Virus record (IMG/VR): IMGVR_UViG_3300028864_000007
Location: 1 to 50,988 of that record
DNA length: 50,988 bases
Source: a virus
Reading direction: 5' to 3' (one strand)
The notes beneath the pieces were generated by a model. The model searched no databases. It had not been told where the DNA came from and saw only the letters and a program-made list of their open reading frames with translations. The position numbers and the translations under genes are program-made. How positions within the stretch are numbered: position 1 is the stretch's first letter; every line of letters begins with the position of its first letter. Shown here piece after piece: positions 38,661 through 47,137 of the stretch.

Positions 38661-39272
38661 ATGGAATTGATTAAACCTAATTACGAAATCCTATCACCAA
38701 TTGATGGTGCTGCCATTCTGAAGTCTCTGGAAATGGCTGGAAGAGTTTGTTACAAAAGTGAAGAAAAGATTACTCCAGAAAGTGCGAGTAAGTTTGTTCA
38801 CATGCTAATCAACAAAGGGCATGAAAGTGTTCTTGAACATGAGAAAATCTCTGTGAGGTTTATTTGTGACCGTGGTGTGTCACATGAAATTGTACGTCAC
38901 AGAATAGCAAGTTTCTCACAAGAAAGTACTCGTTACTGTAACTACAAAGGTGGAGTTGCTTTCATACTTCCTTTTTGGCTTCTTAATGCTGGTCAAGCAG
39001 AACTTGAAGTTTGGAATCAGGCAATGAGGATTGCTGAAGAGAGCTATCAGATGCTCATCAAACTCGGTTGGACTCCTCAACAAGCACGGTCAGTACTTCC
39101 AAATAGTACAAAGACTGAAATTATCGTTACTGCAAATTTACGTGAATGGAGAACTATCTTCAAGCAACGTACATCAAAAGCTGCTCATCCTCAAATGAGA
39201 GAAATTATGTGTCCTCTATTAGATGAGTTAGCATTTGCTATCCCAGTAGTATTTGAAGATATAGAGTATTAG
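38661..39272 (+). CDS. thyX: Flavin-dependent thymidylate synthase
   Basis: Of 203 residues. The ThyX signature RHR-x7-S is present as RHRIASFSQESTRY at residues 79-92. The preceding LEHEKISVRFICDRGVSHE (59-77) and the NATK/R-type segment SVLPNSTKTEI with LREWRTIFKQR (about 144-170) complete the active site. The enzyme makes dTMP from dUMP with methylene-tetrahydrofolate and FAD/NADPH. Its presence means the two thymidylate-synthase-fold proteins at 43912 and 45911 are not needed for dTMP, which supports another role for them. It starts after repeat copy 3. Confidence 0.95.
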   Translation: MELIKPNYEILSPIDGAAILKSLEMAGRVCYKSEEKITPESASKFVHMLINKGHESVLEHEKISVRFICDRGVSHEIVRHRIASFSQESTRYCNYKGGVAFILPFWLLNAGQAELEVWNQAMRIAEESYQMLIKLGWTPQQARSVLPNSTKTEIIVTANLREWRTIFKQRTSKAAHPQMREIMCPLLDELAFAIPVVFEDIEY

Positions 39273-39273
39273 C

Positions 39274-39654
39274 ATGAGCACACAGGGACACTATCTTAAT
39301 AACTTGTGGAGATGGAAGTGTGGAATGCCAGAATTGCAAGAGCCAATTAAGGTAACACTTGATTTTGACGAGTTAGCCAAATCTCAGATGTCAGAACAGT
39401 TTGTAGAGTACATGGCCAATAGAATGGTACTCGGTACATTCAGGTATGGCAAATGGCAGGATAACAAGAAGAATGGAGTCAAGATTGACAGAATTTCTTC
39501 TATTCGTAAAAGACTCGATTTATTTGAGAAAACTGGTAATTCAGAATATCTAGTTGATATAGCCAATTTGGCAATGATTGAATTTGAAATTAGTGACCAT
39601 CCTAACTTATACTTTGCAGCTATTGATGATGGTTGTCATGCAGAATTTAAATGA
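39274..39654 (+). CDS. Hypothetical phage protein, MazG-like helical, 126 residues
   Basis: It starts one base after the ThyX stop. The central part has MVLGTFRYGKWQDNKKNG, then RKRLDLFEKTGNSEYLVDIANLAMIEFE, with an acidic helix D-x3-A-x3-E spacing reminiscent of all-alpha NTP pyrophosphatases. Proteins like this occur in many phages near ThyX. A nucleotide-pool role is plausible; I do not regard it as proved. Confidence 0.7.
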   Translation: MSTQGHYLNNLWRWKCGMPELQEPIKVTLDFDELAKSQMSEQFVEYMANRMVLGTFRYGKWQDNKKNGVKIDRISSIRKRLDLFEKTGNSEYLVDIANLAMIEFEISDHPNLYFAAIDDGCHAEFK

Positions 39655-41469: not shown

Positions 41470-43272
41470 ATGCAAATCAAAAACTCACTTCTTATTACTC
41501 TCGGCCATAATTCAAGTGCCATCTTAGTGTATTATAACGGAACCAGGATAATTGGTTATGAGCAAGAACGTATTGACGGTATCAAGTCGTCAAGTGCTTT
41601 TCCAAGTGGAGCAATATTCAAAATTGCAGAAGTACTCGGCATGCAATATATGCAAGGTTGTAAAGTGTATATCTCTCATTGGTTTGACTGCGATAAGTCA
41701 GGTCATAAATTCAAGCCAAGTAAATACATGACTGAAATTGACATGGCTAATCTTTTGGCATTCACTACACTAGAAAATATATCATTTTGCGATTCACTTG
41801 ATACACACCATGATGCTCATGCTTGTTCTGCATTGGCTTTCTTTAAGTACCATGCACATACTAATGATGTTTTCAAAGTTGGTGAGCATATGAAAGGTGA
41901 AGATATTCATGTCATTGTTGCAGACGGATTTGGTACAAATGGTGAAGTACTTTCAATCTACAAAACAAAACTCGATTCTACTTCTTTGGATTTAGTTACT
42001 TCTGTACGTAATTACCCAGCTTCTTTTGGTCTTATGTACCAATATGCAACGTCATTCACAGGAATGAAGGAAAACCAAGACGAGTACAAATATCTTGGTT
42101 ATGAAGCTCATATTGGTGAATATTGTGATTTAGAAGAGATTGACAGACTTGACTATTACATCGAGTCAACTGTTGAACATCTCAAGAATGCAAGGCTCAA
42201 CAAAAATGGATACATTTCAAATGGGCATGATTTAATAAACTTTGACAACCTTAATATTGTGAAGAATTGGTGGCACTCATGGTTTGAAGAAGTTTTAATG
42301 AACTCATGCAATGAAACTGAAATTCTGTTTGATTCATTTAAAGCACGTGTCATGATTGCTTATCTGATTCAACAATCTCTTGAAATATCGATGACACGCA
42401 TTCTTGATGAGTATGACATAAAGAATTGCATAGTTGTAGGTGGTGTGTTCTACAATGTAAAACTAAACAACAAGATTCTTACACATATTCCTGGTATATT
42501 CTGTGCTGCTCCATTAGCTGGAGACCAAGGTGCAGCAATTGGTATGTTCTACATTGACACTATAAACAAATATCCAATGTATGACTTCCCATTCAAGTCG
42601 TTGTGCATTGGCGAACGCAAGTTGCATGGAATTGAGAAATTCAAGATTCCAAACATGAAGCATGTAATCGTTGATAGTGATGCAAAACGCTTCGATGTTA
42701 TTAAGCAAATTGCTACTGATATTGTAAACAATAAAATTGTGAATCTAGTAAGTGGTCCTATGGAATTTGGTCCACGTGCTTTGTGCAACACTTCTACACT
42801 CATGCTTCCTACTCAAGAATTAGTTGGCATCAACAATTACTTGAACAATCGCAACGAAGTAATGCCATGTGCACCTGTAATGCTCAAAAGAAATGCAGAA
42901 CATTTGTTTGACAAGAATGAACTTGACAGGGTTATTGGTTCAGACAACTTCATGATTTGTACACATGATTATAGTGTATGGCACACTAATTCTATGGCAG
43001 GTGTAATGCACAAGAAACCACTTGAAGATGTATATACTGGCCGTCCACAAATTGTATCTGATGATTCATTTATTGGTCAAATTCTACAGAAAGTTGAATA
43101 CATGTGTGGTGAACGTGCGCTTGTAAACACAAGCTTCAACACTCATGGACGTCCAATAGCATTTGAAACAATGGATATAATCCATAACTTCAATTACCAA
43201 ACAAGTAGGATAAATAGTCAACTGGCAAAAGACTTAGACTTCTTCAAGTTGTACATAATTGACATTGAATAG
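41470..43272 (+). CDS. Carbamoyltransferase, NodU/TobZ type (candidate DNA-base modification enzyme)
   Basis: Of 600 residues. The N-terminal ASKHA-like domain has TLGHNSSAILV (10-20), YEQERIDGIKSSSAFPSG (30-47) and THHDAHACSA (112-121), whose His/Asp bind the metal and carbamoyl-phosphate site. IVVGGVFYNVKLNN (about 316-329), SGPMEFGPRAL (428-438) and NTSFNTHGRP (about 553-562) complete the family set. The family transfers carbamoyl from carbamoyl-phosphate to a hydroxyl group. In a phage next to cytosine-type hydroxymethylases, the acceptor is probably 5-hydroxymethylcytosine, giving 5-carbamoyloxymethylcytosine, a modification reported from metagenomic phages. It heads the cluster 41470-46588. 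Confidence 0.92.
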   Translation: MQIKNSLLITLGHNSSAILVYYNGTRIIGYEQERIDGIKSSSAFPSGAIFKIAEVLGMQYMQGCKVYISHWFDCDKSGHKFKPSKYMTEIDMANLLAFTTLENISFCDSLDTHHDAHACSALAFFKYHAHTNDVFKVGEHMKGEDIHVIVADGFGTNGEVLSIYKTKLDSTSLDLVTSVRNYPASFGLMYQYATSFTGMKENQDEYKYLGYEAHIGEYCDLEEIDRLDYYIESTVEHLKNARLNKNGYISNGHDLINFDNLNIVKNWWHSWFEEVLMNSCNETEILFDSFKARVMIAYLIQQSLEISMTRILDEYDIKNCIVVGGVFYNVKLNNKILTHIPGIFCAAPLAGDQGAAIGMFYIDTINKYPMYDFPFKSLCIGERKLHGIEKFKIPNMKHVIVDSDAKRFDVIKQIATDIVNNKIVNLVSGPMEFGPRALCNTSTLMLPTQELVGINNYLNNRNEVMPCAPVMLKRNAEHLFDKNELDRVIGSDNFMICTHDYSVWHTNSMAGVMHKKPLEDVYTGRPQIVSDDSFIGQILQKVEYMCGERALVNTSFNTHGRPIAFETMDIIHNFNYQTSRINSQLAKDLDFFKLYIIDIE

Positions 43273-43273
43273 T

Positions 43274-43924
43274 ATGCCAACAATATTCCACAAAAAAGGT
43301 CCAACCATTATAGCATTCTCTGGAGGGTGCTATAGTGGCAAGACGACCTCAATGCAACGTCTACAAAGGCATATTGGCTTAGATAGGTGTACATTATTGA
43401 GTGAGTTGATACGTGAAAAGTTGTTAACTACAATTGATGATGTTAGGTCAAAGCCATCTGAATATTTACGATTGCAATGCGACATTATAAAACAGAAGAT
43501 TAATCAGGAAATGGAGCTTCTTTTGTATAATAAACAAAGAGTCATTTTGGTTGACAGGTCTATCGCTGATTCGCTATTCTACTTGCTATTTTATGTGGAC
43601 AAACATTCATTGACTGAGAATGAACTACGTGCTTATTACGGAATATACAAGTACACGCATGATTATGCCAACTTCGCTTATAAGAGTATCTACTCGTCCG
43701 TACTATTCTTTGAACCAATTAAAGCTGATTGCATTGACAACATCAATCGACCTAAAGCAATAAACTCTACAATGAAGTTCTTTGAGCGTGACGTAATTAA
43801 GTCAATCAATGAACAGTACACTGACCAACTATACACCATTGACCTCAACAAAGAAACAGAATTGTTTACTGACTCTGCAAAAATGGACAAACTCTTATTT
43901 GACACTGTAGGATGGAAAATATAA
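43274..43924 (+). CDS. P-loop nucleotide kinase (candidate deoxynucleotide kinase)
   Basis: The frame is open from 43259, but the ATG at 43274 (MPTIFHKKGPTIIAFSG...) lies one base after the previous stop and gives 216 residues. The P-loop GGCYSGKTTS is at residues 17-26. VDRSIADSLFY near 92-102 (DR-x3-D) is the typical Asp/Arg segment of the NadR/thymidylate-kinase-like P-loop group. Fixed between a carbamoyltransferase and a TS-fold hydroxymethylase, it may phosphorylate the modified dCMP (5-hm-dCMP) to the diphosphate, as T4 gp1 does. A 5-hydroxymethyl-base kinase acting on DNA is an alternative. Its substrate cannot be read from the sequence. Confidence 0.85.
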   Translation: MPTIFHKKGPTIIAFSGGCYSGKTTSMQRLQRHIGLDRCTLLSELIREKLLTTIDDVRSKPSEYLRLQCDIIKQKINQEMELLLYNKQRVILVDRSIADSLFYLLFYVDKHSLTENELRAYYGIYKYTHDYANFAYKSIYSSVLFFEPIKADCIDNINRPKAINSTMKFFERDVIKSINEQYTDQLYTIDLNKETELFTDSAKMDKLLFDTVGWKI

Positions 43925-44805
43925 AGGCACCGTCTCACTTTAAGATAAGTGAAGAAGTTGAAAAGAGAATGTACCAAGATACATTCAGACTTCTTGACAC
44001 GAATGTGTTTGGCAGATTCTGTGAAGACATGAGGAAATGTAATGACACAGACTTACTTGAAGTTGAGAACTATTCTTTCAGAATAAACCCACTTTCACAA
44101 TACTTTTATCTTTGCTCTCCTGCTAATGACGAGTCTTACTTCTCAAAGAATAAAGCATGTGCATTGATGGACTGGTACCTAAATGGTGACAGAGATGATT
44201 TATCAATATTAAAAGCTTTTCCTGAGTATGAATATCCTAATATCGATGATGATAACTTTATTCAGATTAACGAGTCTACTCGTCAGGTCTTTCCTAAGTT
44301 TAACAGCAATTATGGTTATTATTTATTCACTCAAGGATTCTTGTTTAAAGCATACGAAAAACTAAAAGCAAACAAGAACTCAAGACAAGCATCTATATCA
44401 ATCAATAGCAATCAAGTCATGTATGACCAATCTATTGACAAGTTATGTACAAACAATATAATGTTTCGCATACGTGATAATAAGCTTAATATGACTGTCC
44501 AGATGCGCTCTAATGACTTAATAAGAAACATGGTATATGACGTATTTACGTTCAGTCTTATTTATGGCATTATGTTTAATTCACTTACATTCACATATCC
44601 TGAATTAGGTGTAGGCGAGTACTATCATACTTCAGCTTCTATGCACATACATAAGTCTGATATTGACAAATTAATGTATGCTATGAAAGCTGAGTCACAA
44701 ATAAGGCCATGCTTTAAACTACGATTAAATTTCTATGACCCATATTATCTTGATAAGTTGAAAGCTAAAGTCGCTAAAATAACCAATCTAACATTTAATG
44801 TGTAA
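43912..44805 (+). CDS. Thymidylate-synthase-fold hydroxymethyltransferase A (probable dCMP hydroxymethylase)
   Basis: Of 297 residues. NSNYGYYLF (131-139) corresponds to the YG-x-QW segment; NSRQASISIN (156-165) to the Arg-containing active-site loop. The catalytic Cys is in DKLCTNNIMF (C179), followed after 20 residues by QMRSND (197-202), the QRSxD box. Counting eight residues past that Asp, the residue aligned with E. coli TS Asn177 is Asp210 (VYDVFTF). T4 dCMP hydroxymethylase also has Asp there, and true TS has Asn, so dCMP is the likely substrate. The C-terminal HTSASMHIHKSD (239-250) aligns with the TS GDTHLY region. It lies between the kinase and the dUTPase-like gene, overlapping the kinase gene by 13 bases. 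Confidence 0.88.
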   Translation: MENIKAPSHFKISEEVEKRMYQDTFRLLDTNVFGRFCEDMRKCNDTDLLEVENYSFRINPLSQYFYLCSPANDESYFSKNKACALMDWYLNGDRDDLSILKAFPEYEYPNIDDDNFIQINESTRQVFPKFNSNYGYYLFTQGFLFKAYEKLKANKNSRQASISINSNQVMYDQSIDKLCTNNIMFRIRDNKLNMTVQMRSNDLIRNMVYDVFTFSLIYGIMFNSLTFTYPELGVGEYYHTSASMHIHKSDIDKLMYAMKAESQIRPCFKLRLNFYDPYYLDKLKAKVAKITNLTFNV

Positions 44806-45260
44806 TGGCAAAACAAAATCTTAAATTTACTAGAGTGAGAACAGTCAAACCTCCTCACAGAGGCACTGACAAGTCAGCAGGCATAGACTTCTTTGTGCCA
44901 AGTGAAATTGAACGAATTGACCTACAACCTGGTCAAGCAGCATTGATACCTTCTGGTATTCATGTCAAAGTGCCAATGGGTTATGCACTAATTGCGTTCA
45001 ACAAATCTGGTGTAGCAACAAAACAAGGATTGCAGGTTGGTGCTTGTGTAGTTGATGAGGACTATGAAGGTGAACTTCACATTCATGTGATAAATGTATC
45101 TGACAGTGAAACAATTATAGTTGGTGGTCAGAAGTTAGTACAGTTTGTATTGCTTCCTGTTTATTATGCTGAAGTTGAAGAAACTGAGTCAGTAAAAGAC
45201 CTTTACGCAGGTTCAAACTCTGCACGTGGAACTGGTGGATTTGGTAGTACTGGAAGCTAA
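44805..45260 (+). CDS. dut: dUTPase-fold deoxynucleotide pyrophosphatase
   Basis: Of 151 residues; all five motifs are visible: SAGIDFF (24-30), NKSGVATKQG (66-75), GACVVDEDYEGE (79-90), GQKLVQFVLLP (108-118) and RGTGGFGSTG (141-150). The trimeric family cleaves dUTP to dUMP, feeding ThyX and keeping uracil out of DNA. Because the neighbours are probably dCMP hydroxymethylases, it may act also, or instead, on dCTP, so that the normal base is removed and the modified one is used. Sequence does not decide between these. The gene shares a base with the preceding stop and with the next start. Confidence 0.92.
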   Translation: MAKQNLKFTRVRTVKPPHRGTDKSAGIDFFVPSEIERIDLQPGQAALIPSGIHVKVPMGYALIAFNKSGVATKQGLQVGACVVDEDYEGELHIHVINVSDSETIIVGGQKLVQFVLLPVYYAEVEETESVKDLYAGSNSARGTGGFGSTGS

Positions 45261-45769
45261 TGGAAGAAAGGATAAGCGAGAAATTCGCAACCATAGACGA
45301 ACTAACTGCAGATGCATATTTCAAAGATGCACTTGCTGAAGTACTTGTAAAGTTTGAAAACAGAAAAGAGCCACCTGCAGGAATGCATTACAAACGTGGC
45401 AAGTATGAATACCTTGTAGAAGGCAAGTACTTGACTGTAGAAAGGTTCATTGCTCTATTCAATGTGATTAACAGACACATTGGGCCTAAGCATCCAATGG
45501 CTGTGCGTGAGTTTGTTAAAGATGTAGTAATTGCAGTCAGTGTTGAAACAATCAAACATTACAGAAGCCTTGACATTCTTGATACAGTTGACCCAATTCC
45601 TGATAATGACGAAGTATGTCAATTATGTGGTGGTGAAATGGAGCAATTTGATGGCGAGTACAAACGACTTCAACATGATAATGGTAGTGAACCAGAAGAG
45701 ATACCAATTTGGGAATCATTCAAGTGCAAACTGTGCGGTAACATCATAAGCAACGAACCTGAAAAGTGA
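45260..45769 (+). CDS. Hypothetical protein with C-terminal zinc ribbon, 169 residues
   Basis: The N-terminal part contains a short helical domain (residues 1-50) and a polar region with PAGMHYKRGKYEYLVEGKYL. The C-terminal part has VCQLCGGEMEQF and FKCKLCGNII, two CxxC pairs typical of a zinc ribbon. It starts on the last base of the dUTPase-like gene and lies inside the modification cluster; a nucleic-acid-binding or accessory role is possible. Family not recognised. Confidence 0.75.
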   Translation: MEERISEKFATIDELTADAYFKDALAEVLVKFENRKEPPAGMHYKRGKYEYLVEGKYLTVERFIALFNVINRHIGPKHPMAVREFVKDVVIAVSVETIKHYRSLDILDTVDPIPDNDEVCQLCGGEMEQFDGEYKRLQHDNGSEPEEIPIWESFKCKLCGNIISNEPEK

Positions 45770-45921
45770 AAGCAATATACCTTCATATTGGAGACTTAGT
45801 AGTAATTGGTGAAAACCAATATGCTGCTAAAGAAGAAGGATTTGTAGAAGTTCCTGCAGAAGCTATTCAAGTCACTAAAGAAGGTTTACAAATTAATATA
45901 GCAATCTATTATGATATTTAG
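45766..45921 (+). CDS. Small protein with GTG start, 51 residues
   Basis: The start is GTG at 45766-45768, whose last two bases are part of the previous TGA stop (GTGA). The product MKAIYLHIGDLVVIGENQ... is a compact beta-rich protein ending INIAIYYDI. It fills the space between two genes in frame with its neighbours' spacing, which supports it, though no ATG start exists. It extends 11 bases into the next gene. Function unknown. Confidence 0.6.
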   Translation: MKAIYLHIGDLVVIGENQYAAKEEGFVEVPAEAIQVTKEGLQINIAIYYDI

Positions 45922-46588
45922 ATATAACAATTGTGTCTTTGAAGATGCCAACGAGGTATTCACTTACATGTATGACCAGATTATGCAGTTTGGTCATGAG
46001 AATGGAAATGGTACACGTAAACTACTCAATGTAGGCTTCTATATGATGCACCCTGGTCAACGTTTAATTGCTTGTGATTGGCGCAAGTGGAGTGGCAAGT
46101 ATGCAGAACGTGAATGGCAATGGTACCAATCACAAAATAGAAGTGTAGCCGAACTTAAGAAGTTTGCTCCTACTTGGGACAAGATGCACAATGGCAACAA
46201 CATCGTCAATTCTAATTATGGTTGGCAATGGAACAGAAATTACCAGCTAGAAGGTGCCATAAATCTGCTACGTGAAAATAAGCATACACGTCAAGCTTGT
46301 ATAACTATATTTGATGGTAAAGAAGCTGACCAGTATGCTTATGACACTCCCTGCACGATGTATATCAACTTCATATTTATGGAAGAATATGGATTGTGCA
46401 TGGAAGTACACATGAGGTCTAATGACCTTGTCTATGGATTCTGTAATGACCAGTATTGCTTCAGCAAGTTGCAAGAGTATGTTGCTGTACAACTTAATAT
46501 GAAGATTGGTTGGTACTACCATTTTGCAAATGACTTACACATATACGAAAAGCATTTTGACTTAAAGCCCCAAAGATTAGGTATATAA
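45911..46588 (+). CDS. Thymidylate-synthase-fold hydroxymethyltransferase B (probable dCMP hydroxymethylase)
   Basis: Of 225 residues, the second TS-fold protein of the cluster. SNYGWQWNRN (101-110) matches the VYGxQW segment of thymidylate synthase. RENKHTRQACIT (121-132) is the Arg loop. The catalytic Cys lies in DTPCTMYI (C148), and HMRSND (167-172) is the QRSxD box. The residue aligned with TS Asn177 is Asp180 (CNDQYCF), as in dCMP-type enzymes and in paralogue A. The end NDLHIYEKH (207-215) matches GDTHLY. It is closer to canonical TS than A and shorter. Having two such enzymes in one genome is unusual; they may form a heterodimer, or act on different nucleotides. Confidence 0.88.
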   Translation: MIFRYNNCVFEDANEVFTYMYDQIMQFGHENGNGTRKLLNVGFYMMHPGQRLIACDWRKWSGKYAEREWQWYQSQNRSVAELKKFAPTWDKMHNGNNIVNSNYGWQWNRNYQLEGAINLLRENKHTRQACITIFDGKEADQYAYDTPCTMYINFIFMEEYGLCMEVHMRSNDLVYGFCNDQYCFSKLQEYVAVQLNMKIGWYYHFANDLHIYEKHFDLKPQRLGI

Positions 46589-46633: not shown

Positions 46634-47137
46634 ATGACACAAAGTGAACAAGAACTGTTAGAACTTGCAAAGCAAGTGATAGAACTCAATGACAAGAATT
46701 TAGGTAGTATTATGCTTACAGGCTCATTAATGTTAGCTGTAAGAGGTCTCAACAAAGCAAGAGAAGCAGGCGACATAGATATTCTGTGTAGCATGCTTAC
46801 TGCATATGAACTAGGCCATCCTGTTATGCCTGCTGGATTTAAGGAAGTAGGCATTGATGGAATGAAGTCTGAAGTAAATGCTATCCAGTTCAAAAACGAA
46901 GATGGCATTAAAGTTGAGTTCATGCATTCTGAAGAGCCAAGAGACCTCGTTGATGGTGTATACTGCGCTCAAGTGAATGGCATGTTATATGCCAAAGTTT
47001 TGTATTCTTCACGTGATAAGAATGAAGAATCAAGAAAGAAACATGTAGCTGATGTTCTTTATTTCTTAGAGCATAATGATGCTACATACACCCCAAAGCT
47101 TACTAAACAAAATTCTGCAGACGATTTACCTTTTTAA
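46634..47137 (+). CDS. Nucleotidyltransferase-fold protein
   Basis: Of 167 residues. IMLTGSLMLAVRGL (26-40) followed by AGDIDIL (45-51) is the GS...DxD signature of the nucleotidyltransferase fold; IKVEFMH near 95-101 supplies the third strand acid. The C-terminus is acidic with DDLPF, an ending common in proteins that bind SSBs or replisome partners. A minimal nucleotidyltransferase of this type may modify a small molecule, RNA or a tRNA end; the substrate is unknown. A weak -7-like TAGATTTC lies at 46597-46604. Confidence 0.8.
   Translation: MTQSEQELLELAKQVIELNDKNLGSIMLTGSLMLAVRGLNKAREAGDIDILCSMLTAYELGHPVMPAGFKEVGIDGMKSEVNAIQFKNEDGIKVEFMHSEEPRDLVDGVYCAQVNGMLYAKVLYSSRDKNEESRKKHVADVLYFLEHNDATYTPKLTKQNSADDLPF

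What the first reader, a model, noticed from the sequence alone, without database searches (positions are those of the whole stretch)
41470..46588. Candidate 5-carbamoyloxymethylcytosine DNA-modification cluster
Seen: a complete NodU/TobZ-type carbamoyltransferase, a P-loop kinase, two TS-fold proteins with dCMP-type active sites, a dUTPase-fold pyrophosphatase, a zinc-ribbon protein and a small protein, consecutive on one strand. Known: TS-fold enzymes with Asp in place of Asn177 make 5-hydroxymethyl-dCMP (T4 gp42), and a phage carbamoyltransferase that converts 5-hydroxymethylcytosine to 5-carbamoyloxymethylcytosine was reported from a metagenomic genome-phenome study (MetaGPA; from memory). 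Inferred: this phage makes hm-dCMP, phosphorylates it, uses it in place of dC, and carbamoylates it in DNA, probably against host restriction. The kinase, the pyrophosphatase and the doubled hydroxymethylase are what would make this layout more than the known pair.
Basis: partly seen in the sequence, partly recalled or inferred. Interest (0 to 1): 0.88.

Follow-up and report, generated by a model that had tools for sequence, protein, structure and literature searches.

The report
Phage cytosine-carbamoylation genes, odd thymidylate-synthase twin
A gut-type phage carries a compact gene set that probably swaps its DNA cytosines for a carbamoyl-capped version as armour against bacterial defences, and one of its two look-alike enzymes has lost the folate-binding half of its active site yet is kept by selection, so it probably does something not yet described.

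Summary
In detail: seven overlapping ORFs at 41470-46588. The carbamoyltransferase (CT) belongs with the experimentally proven 5-hydroxymethylcytosine carbamoyltransferase: 34% identical along its full length, with the same diagnostic substitutions. The cluster is therefore a new member of a known kind, also present in Bacteroides fragilis phages. 'Doubled hydroxymethylase' is not supported. TS-B (45911-46588) keeps every residue of a T4-type dCMP hydroxymethylase. TS-A (43912-44805) does not. In 8 of 8 diverged TS-A proteins the folate-site residues fixed in 47 canonical phage enzymes are lost (Glu60 to M/L/I, Trp82 to Y, Gly175 to L/N) or remade (Tyr56 to K, Ile81 to E). The cytosine-handling half (Ser94, Tyr96, Arg123, Asp145, Cys148, Arg168, Asp179) stays intact. 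TS-A is under purifying selection, descends from the CT cassette's own hydroxymethylase, overlaps the kinase gene, and occurs only beside CT. A second, much more divergent degenerate TS ('TS-C') fills the same slot in other CT phages. The only TS-fold enzyme I found with matching losses is RB69 ORF048c, the flavin-dependent 5-hydroxy-dCMP synthase. TS-A is probably folate-independent; its reaction is unknown.

The parts
41470..43272 (+). CT: NodU/TobZ-type carbamoyltransferase, predicted 5-hydroxymethylcytosine carbamoyltransferase (600 aa)
   Evidence: Pfam Carbam_trans_N/C and PHROG 1601; 34% identity over the whole length to the assayed MetaGPA enzyme; residues aligned to TobZ W408/G421/R423 are L/C/T, as I/C/T in the assayed enzyme
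43259..43924 (+). KIN: P-loop nucleotide-kinase-like protein (AAA_28; PHROG 'thymidylate kinase'); TTG start overlaps the CT end by 14 nt
   Evidence: homologues next to CT in many loci, none in 30 CT-less TS-B loci
43912..44805 (+). TS-A: TS-fold paralogue with intact cytosine/phosphate half (S132, Y134, R158, D176, C179, R199, S200, D210 of this protein) but remade folate site (Leu85 at the T4 Glu60 position); probably not a hydroxymethylase
   Evidence: tree; model pLDDT 76.6 with MilA and T4 dCMP hydroxymethylase as best folds; dN/dS 0.02-0.15 among B. fragilis phages
44805..45260 (+). DUT: dUTPase-fold pyrophosphatase (dUTP or dCTP; substrate not decided)
   Evidence: Pfam dUTPase 4e-19, PHROG 135; found with TS-B in 17 of 30 CT-less loci too
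45260..45769 (+). 169-aa protein with two CxxC pairs near the C-terminus (zinc ribbon); no relatives outside near-identical contigs
45766..45921 (+). 51-aa ORF (GTG start) bridging to TS-B; coding status unproven
   Evidence: only
45911..46588 (+). TS-B: dCMP hydroxymethylase of T4 gp42/MilA type, all catalytic residues present (E68, C148, D180 of this protein)
   Evidence: in the tree with Bacteroidetes-phage TSs, most of them from contigs without CT
38661..39272 (+). ThyX, flavin-dependent thymidylate synthase (context: an independent source of dTMP)
   Evidence: Pfam Thy1 8.9e-48

Best explanation
The cluster makes a cytosine-hypermodified phage genome. TS-B converts dCMP to 5-hydroxymethyl-dCMP with methylene-tetrahydrofolate; the dUTPase-fold enzyme supplies monophosphate and/or removes competing triphosphate; the kinase starts the rise to the triphosphate; CT transfers carbamoyl from carbamoyl phosphate via carbamoyl-AMP to the hydroxymethyl group, on hm-dCTP or on DNA, giving 5-carbamoyloxymethylcytosine (5cmC) as protection from host nucleases. 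TS-A is not a second hydroxymethylase. It is the CT cassette's own former hydroxymethylase, made redundant once the cassette sat beside TS-B (or, in L009, a T4-like enzyme). It lost and remade its folate site but kept the pocket that binds a cytosine 5'-nucleotide and attacks C6 through Cys. Most likely it is a folate-independent enzyme that forms the usual Cys-C6 adduct on a cytosine nucleotide (dCMP, hm-dCMP or cm-dCMP) and works with the overlapping kinase and CT, perhaps using a flavin or another cofactor. Shown by computation: gene order, families, residue losses, selection, ancestry, restriction of TS-A to CT loci. Inferred: all reactions in this phage, and the chemistry of TS-A. The confidence given is for the pathway plus 'TS-A is not a folate-dependent hydroxymethylase'; that TS-A is itself catalytic is nearer 0.5.
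For: CT; assayed relative in PMC8670742, active on hmdC in DNA and on hm-dCTP but not hm-dUTP. TS-B: all T4 catalytic residues including hydroxymethylase-specific Ser94 and Asp145 (roles from PMC6400193). TS-A: E60, W82 and G175 (47/47 in canonical enzymes) and Y56 (46/47) kept in 0/8 TS-A, D171 in 2/8; K56, E81 and Y82 fixed 8/8; S94, Y96, R123, D145, C148, T149, R168, D179, H216 kept 8/8. TS-A nests with CT-linked hydroxymethylases (99/98), TS-B in a separate 100/100 clade. TS-A in 6 of 9 CT-bearing and 0 of 30 CT-less TS-B loci (Fisher 3e-5 on loci, some near-duplicates); one TS gene per CT-less record. Purifying selection. TS-C in the same slot elsewhere. Precedent for a folate-free TS fold: RB69 ORF048c / PDB 9iqc.
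Against: No chemical data for this phage or any close relative. Two CT + TS-B lineages lack TS-A (L015, L037/L038), so it is not needed for carbamoylation as such. TS-A could be a non-catalytic binding subunit. It is not in the RB69-type clade, and RB69's E145/T94 are not shared, so the flavin analogy is weak. The TS-A model is only moderately confident (pLDDT 76.6). The kinase's substrate is unknown, and no KIN homologue was found in CT-less TS-B phages, so they must phosphorylate the nucleotide some other way.
Confidence: 0.66

Rival explanations
1. TS-A is a second working dCMP (or dCTP, or ribonucleotide) hydroxymethylase; another residue stands in for Glu60.
For: Cys148 and Asp179 positions kept; TS fold nearest to MilA and T4 dCMP hydroxymethylase; a related group (L025, L026, L027, L032) has Gln at this position in what appears to be its only cytosine-type TS. 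Glu81, fixed in 8 of 8 TS-A, might substitute.
Against: Glu60/Glu58 is described as conserved in all family members and needed to activate methylene-THF (PMC6400193). Tyr56, Ile81, Trp82, Asp171 and Gly175 around the folate are also changed in TS-A. TS-B already supplies the activity.
Confidence: 0.13
2. TS-A is a catalytically silent partner: it binds cytosine nucleotide and regulates or tethers the kinase, CT or TS-B, for example as one half of a heterodimer giving the phosphate-binding Arg123 to the other subunit.
For: TS enzymes are dimers with Arg123/124 supplied by the opposite protomer (PMC6400193), and TS-A keeps Arg123 8 of 8; kinase and TS-A reading frames overlap.
Against: The Cys nucleophile, Asp179, Asp145 and Tyr96 are all kept at about 42% mean pairwise identity, more than ligand binding alone needs; TS-A follows CT, not TS-B.
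Confidence: 0.3
3. TS-A is a flavin-dependent cytosine C5 hydroxylase like RB69 ORF048c (5-hydroxy-dCMP synthase), and CT may carbamoylate 5-hydroxycytosine as well as 5-hydroxymethylcytosine.
For: RB69 ORF048c lacks the same folate-site residues (E60F, W82A, D171N, G175V) and is solved with dCMP and FAD (PDB 9iqc title).
Against: Separate clades; RB69-type enzymes have E145 and T/M94 where TS-A has D145 and S94, and keep Tyr56. The loss may simply reflect folate independence.
Confidence: 0.15
4. CT is a NodU-like enzyme acting on a sugar or other small molecule, not on DNA or nucleotides.
For: NodU/TobZ/GdmN/NovN relatives act on sugars and antibiotics; carbamoyltransferases also occur in cyanophages.
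Against: Best matches are phage CTs beside cytosine-type TS genes; the W, G and R of sugar and antibiotic CTs are replaced as in the assayed 5hmC enzyme.
Confidence: 0.07

Closest known systems
5-hydroxymethylcytosine carbamoyltransferase of the MetaGPA study (PMC8670742) and Xanthomonas phage Xp15-type clusters
   Same: CT of the same class with the same diagnostic residues; hydroxymethylase and kinase close by
   Different: Xp15-type clusters have one TS, MazG-like pyrophosphatase and dCMP deaminase; here there are two TS of different origin and a dUTPase, without detected MazG or deaminase in the cluster
Bacteroides fragilis phages BF503P1/P2/P4, BF486P2/P3, BF494P1
   Same: Same gene order CT-KIN-TS-A-DUT-x-TS-B
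   Different: About 35-54% protein identity; different small genes between DUT and TS-B; both TS annotated as dCMP hydroxymethylases
T4 gp42 dCMP hydroxymethylase
   Same: TS-B carries Glu60, Cys148, Asp179, Ser94, Tyr96 and Asp145 equivalents
   Different: TS-B lies in a separate clade; TS-A has lost the folate half
RB69 ORF048c, TS-superfamily 5-hydroxy-dCMP synthase (PDB 9iqc; PMC13390438 citing Lee et al. 2025)
   Same: TS fold without Glu60, Trp82, Asp171, Gly175, like TS-A
   Different: Own clade; E145, T94 and Y56 where TS-A has D145, S94 and K56

Membership tests
5hmC carbamoyltransferase (MetaGPA type) | Both carbamoyltransferase domains over the Pfam cut-offs | tested here: met
   PF16861 94.4 bits (cut-off 27), PF02543 47 bits (cut-off 24)
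5hmC carbamoyltransferase (MetaGPA type) | Full-length similarity to the assayed enzyme | tested here: met
   34% identity over 592 columns, E 1e-79
5hmC carbamoyltransferase (MetaGPA type) | Replacement of TobZ W408/G421/R423 | tested here: met
   window L/C/T, assayed enzyme I/C/T. TobZ itself was not aligned; positions follow from the spacing 0/+13/+15 in the aligned relatives
5hmC carbamoyltransferase (MetaGPA type) | Adjacent cytosine-type TS | tested here: met
5hmC carbamoyltransferase (MetaGPA type) | Activity on hm-dCTP or hmC-DNA | not testable with these tools
   needs an assay
dCMP hydroxymethylase, TS-B | Cys148, Asp179, Glu60, Tyr96, plus Ser94 and Asp145 | tested here: met
dCMP hydroxymethylase, TS-A | Cys148 and Asp179 | tested here: met
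dCMP hydroxymethylase, TS-A | Glu60, which activates methylene-THF, and the folate pocket (Tyr56, Trp82, Asp171, Gly175) | tested here: not met
   0 of 8 keep Glu60, Tyr56, Trp82 or Gly175; 2 of 8 keep Asp171
5-hydroxy-dCMP synthase (RB69 ORF048c), TS-A | Loss of Glu60/Trp82/Asp171/Gly175 | tested here: met
   (window TS-A itself keeps Asp171; 6 of 8 family members have Asn)
5-hydroxy-dCMP synthase (RB69 ORF048c), TS-A | Common clade and E145 | tested here: not met
5-hydroxy-dCMP synthase (RB69 ORF048c), TS-A | Binds flavin | not testable with these tools
   needs purified protein
nucleotide monophosphate kinase, KIN | P-loop kinase fold with dNMP kinase similarity | tested here: inconclusive
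   AAA_28 in 11 of 11, PHROG thymidylate kinase in 10 of 11, dNK in 2; no close solved relative; substrate unknown
dUTPase | PF00692 with catalytic Asp and C-terminal G-rich motif | tested here: met
   (VVDEDYEGE and RGTGGFGSTG visible); dUTP versus dCTP not decided

The most novel reading that the evidence does not exclude
TS-A (and, on another branch, TS-C) is a folate-free TS-fold enzyme that adds a further step at C5 of the cytosine nucleotide. For example, Cys attack at C6 could expel the carbamate or phosphate of a substituted 5-hydroxymethylcytosine and let a nucleophile other than water add, or a flavin-dependent oxidation could take place. The final base of these phages would then be a hypermodified cytosine beyond 5cmC.
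Probability: 0.3. Interest if true: 0.85.

Novelty: new variant of a known kind. Interest (0 to 1): 0.6.

Why it matters
It extends the only characterised cytosine-carbamoylation system to phages of gut Bacteroidota, with isolates in existence whose DNA could be analysed directly. It also points to an overlooked group of TS-fold proteins, annotated as hydroxymethylases, that have independently lost the folate site next to this carbamoyltransferase. If they carry out another C5 reaction, the real base in these phages is not the one that annotation predicts; if they are binding subunits, they show how carbamoylation is organised. Either answer corrects current annotations and bears on which restriction and modification-dependent nucleases such phages evade.

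Tried and rejected
(1) TS-Q (E58Q; L025, L026, L027, L032, probably L031) as a third case of an extra paralogue: rejected, because the second TS in L027 and L032 is a classical dUMP-type ThyA, so TS-Q is the only cytosine-type TS found there. (2) TS-A as a member of the RB69 5-hydroxy-dCMP synthases: rejected by the tree and by E145/T94. (3) TS-A as a decaying gene: rejected by dN/dS of 0.02-0.15. (4) Kinase as a 5-hmdU DNA kinase: no such match for KIN. (5) Zinc-ribbon protein as a conserved pathway member: no homologue outside near-identical contigs. (6) MazG-like role for 39274-39654, suspected by eye: no family match. (7) Profile searches of PDB or Pfam with TS-C found nothing useful; its TS kinship rests on motifs, a partial profile match (88.9% probability) and the predicted fold. 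(8) The source paper for 5-hydroxy-dCMP synthase is not held; I used a citing paper. (9) Host: the genome scan found CT only in three MAG contigs, which does not identify the window's host.
Full report
OBSERVATION. The seven ORFs exist at 41470-46588 on the + strand, each overlapping the next by 1-14 nt, which suggests one translationally coupled operon. Domain searches give carbamoyltransferase N and C domains, an AAA_28 P-loop protein, two thymidylate-synthase (TS) folds and a dUTPase; the zinc-ribbon protein matches nothing over a cut-off. The window is a tailed-phage contig with terminase, portal, tape measure, endolysin, a family A DNA polymerase, a primase/helicase and ThyX. It is held as a virus record of its own.

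CARBAMOYLTRANSFERASE. A phage-wide search finds 33 records. The best are Bacteroides fragilis phages (51% identity), then Acinetobacter phages and Xanthomonas phage Xp15 (35-37%). The MetaGPA paper prints the sequence of the enzyme that was expressed and shown to convert 5hmdC in DNA and hm-dCTP, but not hm-dUTP, into the carbamoyloxymethyl product (PMC8670742). The window protein aligns with it over its full length at 34%. MetaGPA named TobZ W408, G421 and R423 as the positions that best separate modified from unmodified contigs. In the window these read L, C, T and in the assayed enzyme I, C, T, as in nearly all CTs found here; solved sugar and antibiotic carbamoyltransferases keep G and R and mostly W. 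I did not align TobZ itself; the positions follow from the 0/+13/+15 spacing.

TWO TS PROTEINS OF DIFFERENT ORIGIN. I collected 53 CT loci, 7 TS-A loci and 36 TS-B loci from viral contigs and compared all TS proteins with E. coli ThyA and T4 gp42. TS-B has every catalytic residue of T4 dCMP hydroxymethylase, including Ser94 and Asp145, which position the water for hydroxylation (PMC6400193). In the tree it falls in a 100/100 clade of Bacteroidetes-phage TSs, most from contigs without CT. TS-A forms a separate clade (100/99) inside the CT-linked, Xp15-type hydroxymethylases (99/98), with L033 as probable sister (94/78). L033 has the order CT-kinase-TS-deaminase and an intact Glu60. TS-A is therefore most likely the CT cassette's own former hydroxymethylase.

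WHAT TS-A LOST AND KEPT (T4 numbering). In 47 canonical enzymes Glu60, Trp82, Asp171 and Gly175 are invariant, and Tyr56 is present in 46. In 8 TS-A proteins Glu60 is M, L or I; Tyr56 is Lys in all; Trp82 is Tyr in all; residue 81 is Glu in all; Asp171 is Asn in 6; Gly175 is Leu or Asn. These positions lie in the folate site; Glu60 activates methylene-THF (PMC6400193). The cytosine and phosphate side (Ser94, Tyr96, Arg123, Asp145, Cys148, Thr149, Arg168, Asp179, His216) is unchanged in all 8. TS-A is not decaying: pairwise dN/dS among B. fragilis phages is 0.02-0.15. The model (pLDDT 76.6, pTM 0.81) matches MilA and T4 dCMP hydroxymethylase best.

TS-A GOES WITH CT, NOT WITH TS-B. TS-A is in 6 of 9 TS-B loci that have CT and in 0 of 30 that do not (Fisher 3e-5; 4e-4 if 17 CT-less loci are counted; loci are not fully independent). 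Whole-record searches found no CT in 17 CT-less records and only one TS gene in each of 12 CT-less records, against two in the TS-A bearers. In L009, TS-A and the kinase sit beside CT with a T4-like hydroxymethylase instead of TS-B. No KIN homologue was found in the 30 CT-less loci. In L067 and similar contigs the stretch between helicase and dUTPase instead holds a methyltransferase, a protein with the 5-hmdU-DNA-kinase helical domain and a SAM-synthetase-like protein. So the base module dUTPase + TS-B appears to carry exchangeable hypermodification cassettes, and TS-A belongs to the CT cassette.

A RECURRENT SLOT. In about eleven other distinct CT loci a second degenerate TS, TS-C (187-267 aa), sits near CT beside a canonical TS, often directly after the kinase (L017, L019, L034, and L113 from a Patescibacteria MAG). 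It keeps Tyr, Arg-Arg, Asp-x-x-Cys, Arg...Asp and the Asp179 position, has Glu where Gly175 should be, and no recognisable Glu60 segment. Pfam does not recognise it as a TS. Its model (pLDDT 92.3) matches TS structures, E about 1e-5, TM 0.4-0.6.

PRECEDENT. PDB 9iqc/9iqu, a TS-fold 'monooxygenase dependent on riboflavin with dCMP and FAD', matches RB69 ORF048c at 100% over the stretch compared. A 2026 paper describes the 5-hydroxy-dCMP synthase of Mosigvirus, RB69's genus, as a TS-superfamily enzyme (PMC13390438); equating the two is my inference. It lacks the same folate residues (E60F, W82A, D171N, G175V) but forms its own clade with E145 and T94. A TS fold can therefore drop folate; TS-A did so independently.

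MECHANISM AND CERTAINTY. Most likely TS-B makes hm-dCMP, KIN and host enzymes raise it to hm-dCTP, and CT carbamoylates hm-dCTP or DNA. TS-A binds a cytosine nucleotide covalently without folate and acts with KIN and CT. About one chance in three remains that it is only a binding subunit, and a smaller one that it is still a hydroxymethylase. CT + TS-B lineages without TS-A exist (L015, L037/L038), so TS-A is an addition and not a requirement. All reactions in this phage are inferred.

NOVELTY. The CT-hydroxymethylase cluster is a new member of a known kind. The folate-site-less TS-A and TS-C proteins in it are a new variant; within the papers I could search I found no description of them.

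Noticed in passing
L016:5244, L017:11349, L018:10767, L019:12420, L020:10771, L021:7206, L022:9064, L023:2856, L024:10751, L028:10841, L034:11571, L113:9017: TS-C: a second, very divergent TS-fold protein near CT in other phages, invisible to Pfam as a TS, often directly after the kinase gene.
   Followed up: partly
L067:3993-7713 (also L068, L071, L080, L065): TS-B phages without CT carry, between helicase and dUTPase, a SAM methyltransferase and in several cases a protein with the 5-hmdU DNA kinase helical domain and a truncated SAM synthetase: possibly another cytosine hypermodification.
   Followed up: partly
L025:8216, L026:8213, L027:8213, L032:8177: CT-linked TS with Gln at the catalytic Glu60 position, Glu at Asp171 and Lys/Glu at Tyr218; the only cytosine-type TS found in these contigs. 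L027 and L032 also encode a classical ThyA.
   Followed up: partly
46634-47137: Nucleotidyltransferase-like ORF (GSLML...DIDILC) just after TS-B; by eye similar small proteins lie near TS-B in L067 (6425) and BF503P1 (L001:13547).
   Followed up: no
L001:11465-12271 and equivalents in BF503P2, BF503P4, BF486P2: Public records annotate TS-A as deoxycytidylate 5-hydroxymethyltransferase; the residue evidence argues against this.
   Followed up: yes
39274-39654: 126-aa protein between ThyX and a VRR-NUC protein, no family match.
   Followed up: no
L018:11435-13400, L020:12406-13425: Nucleotide-sugar epimerase-like genes and a thymidine-kinase-like gene inside CT/TS clusters, suggesting that sugar chemistry may be added as well.
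   Followed up: no
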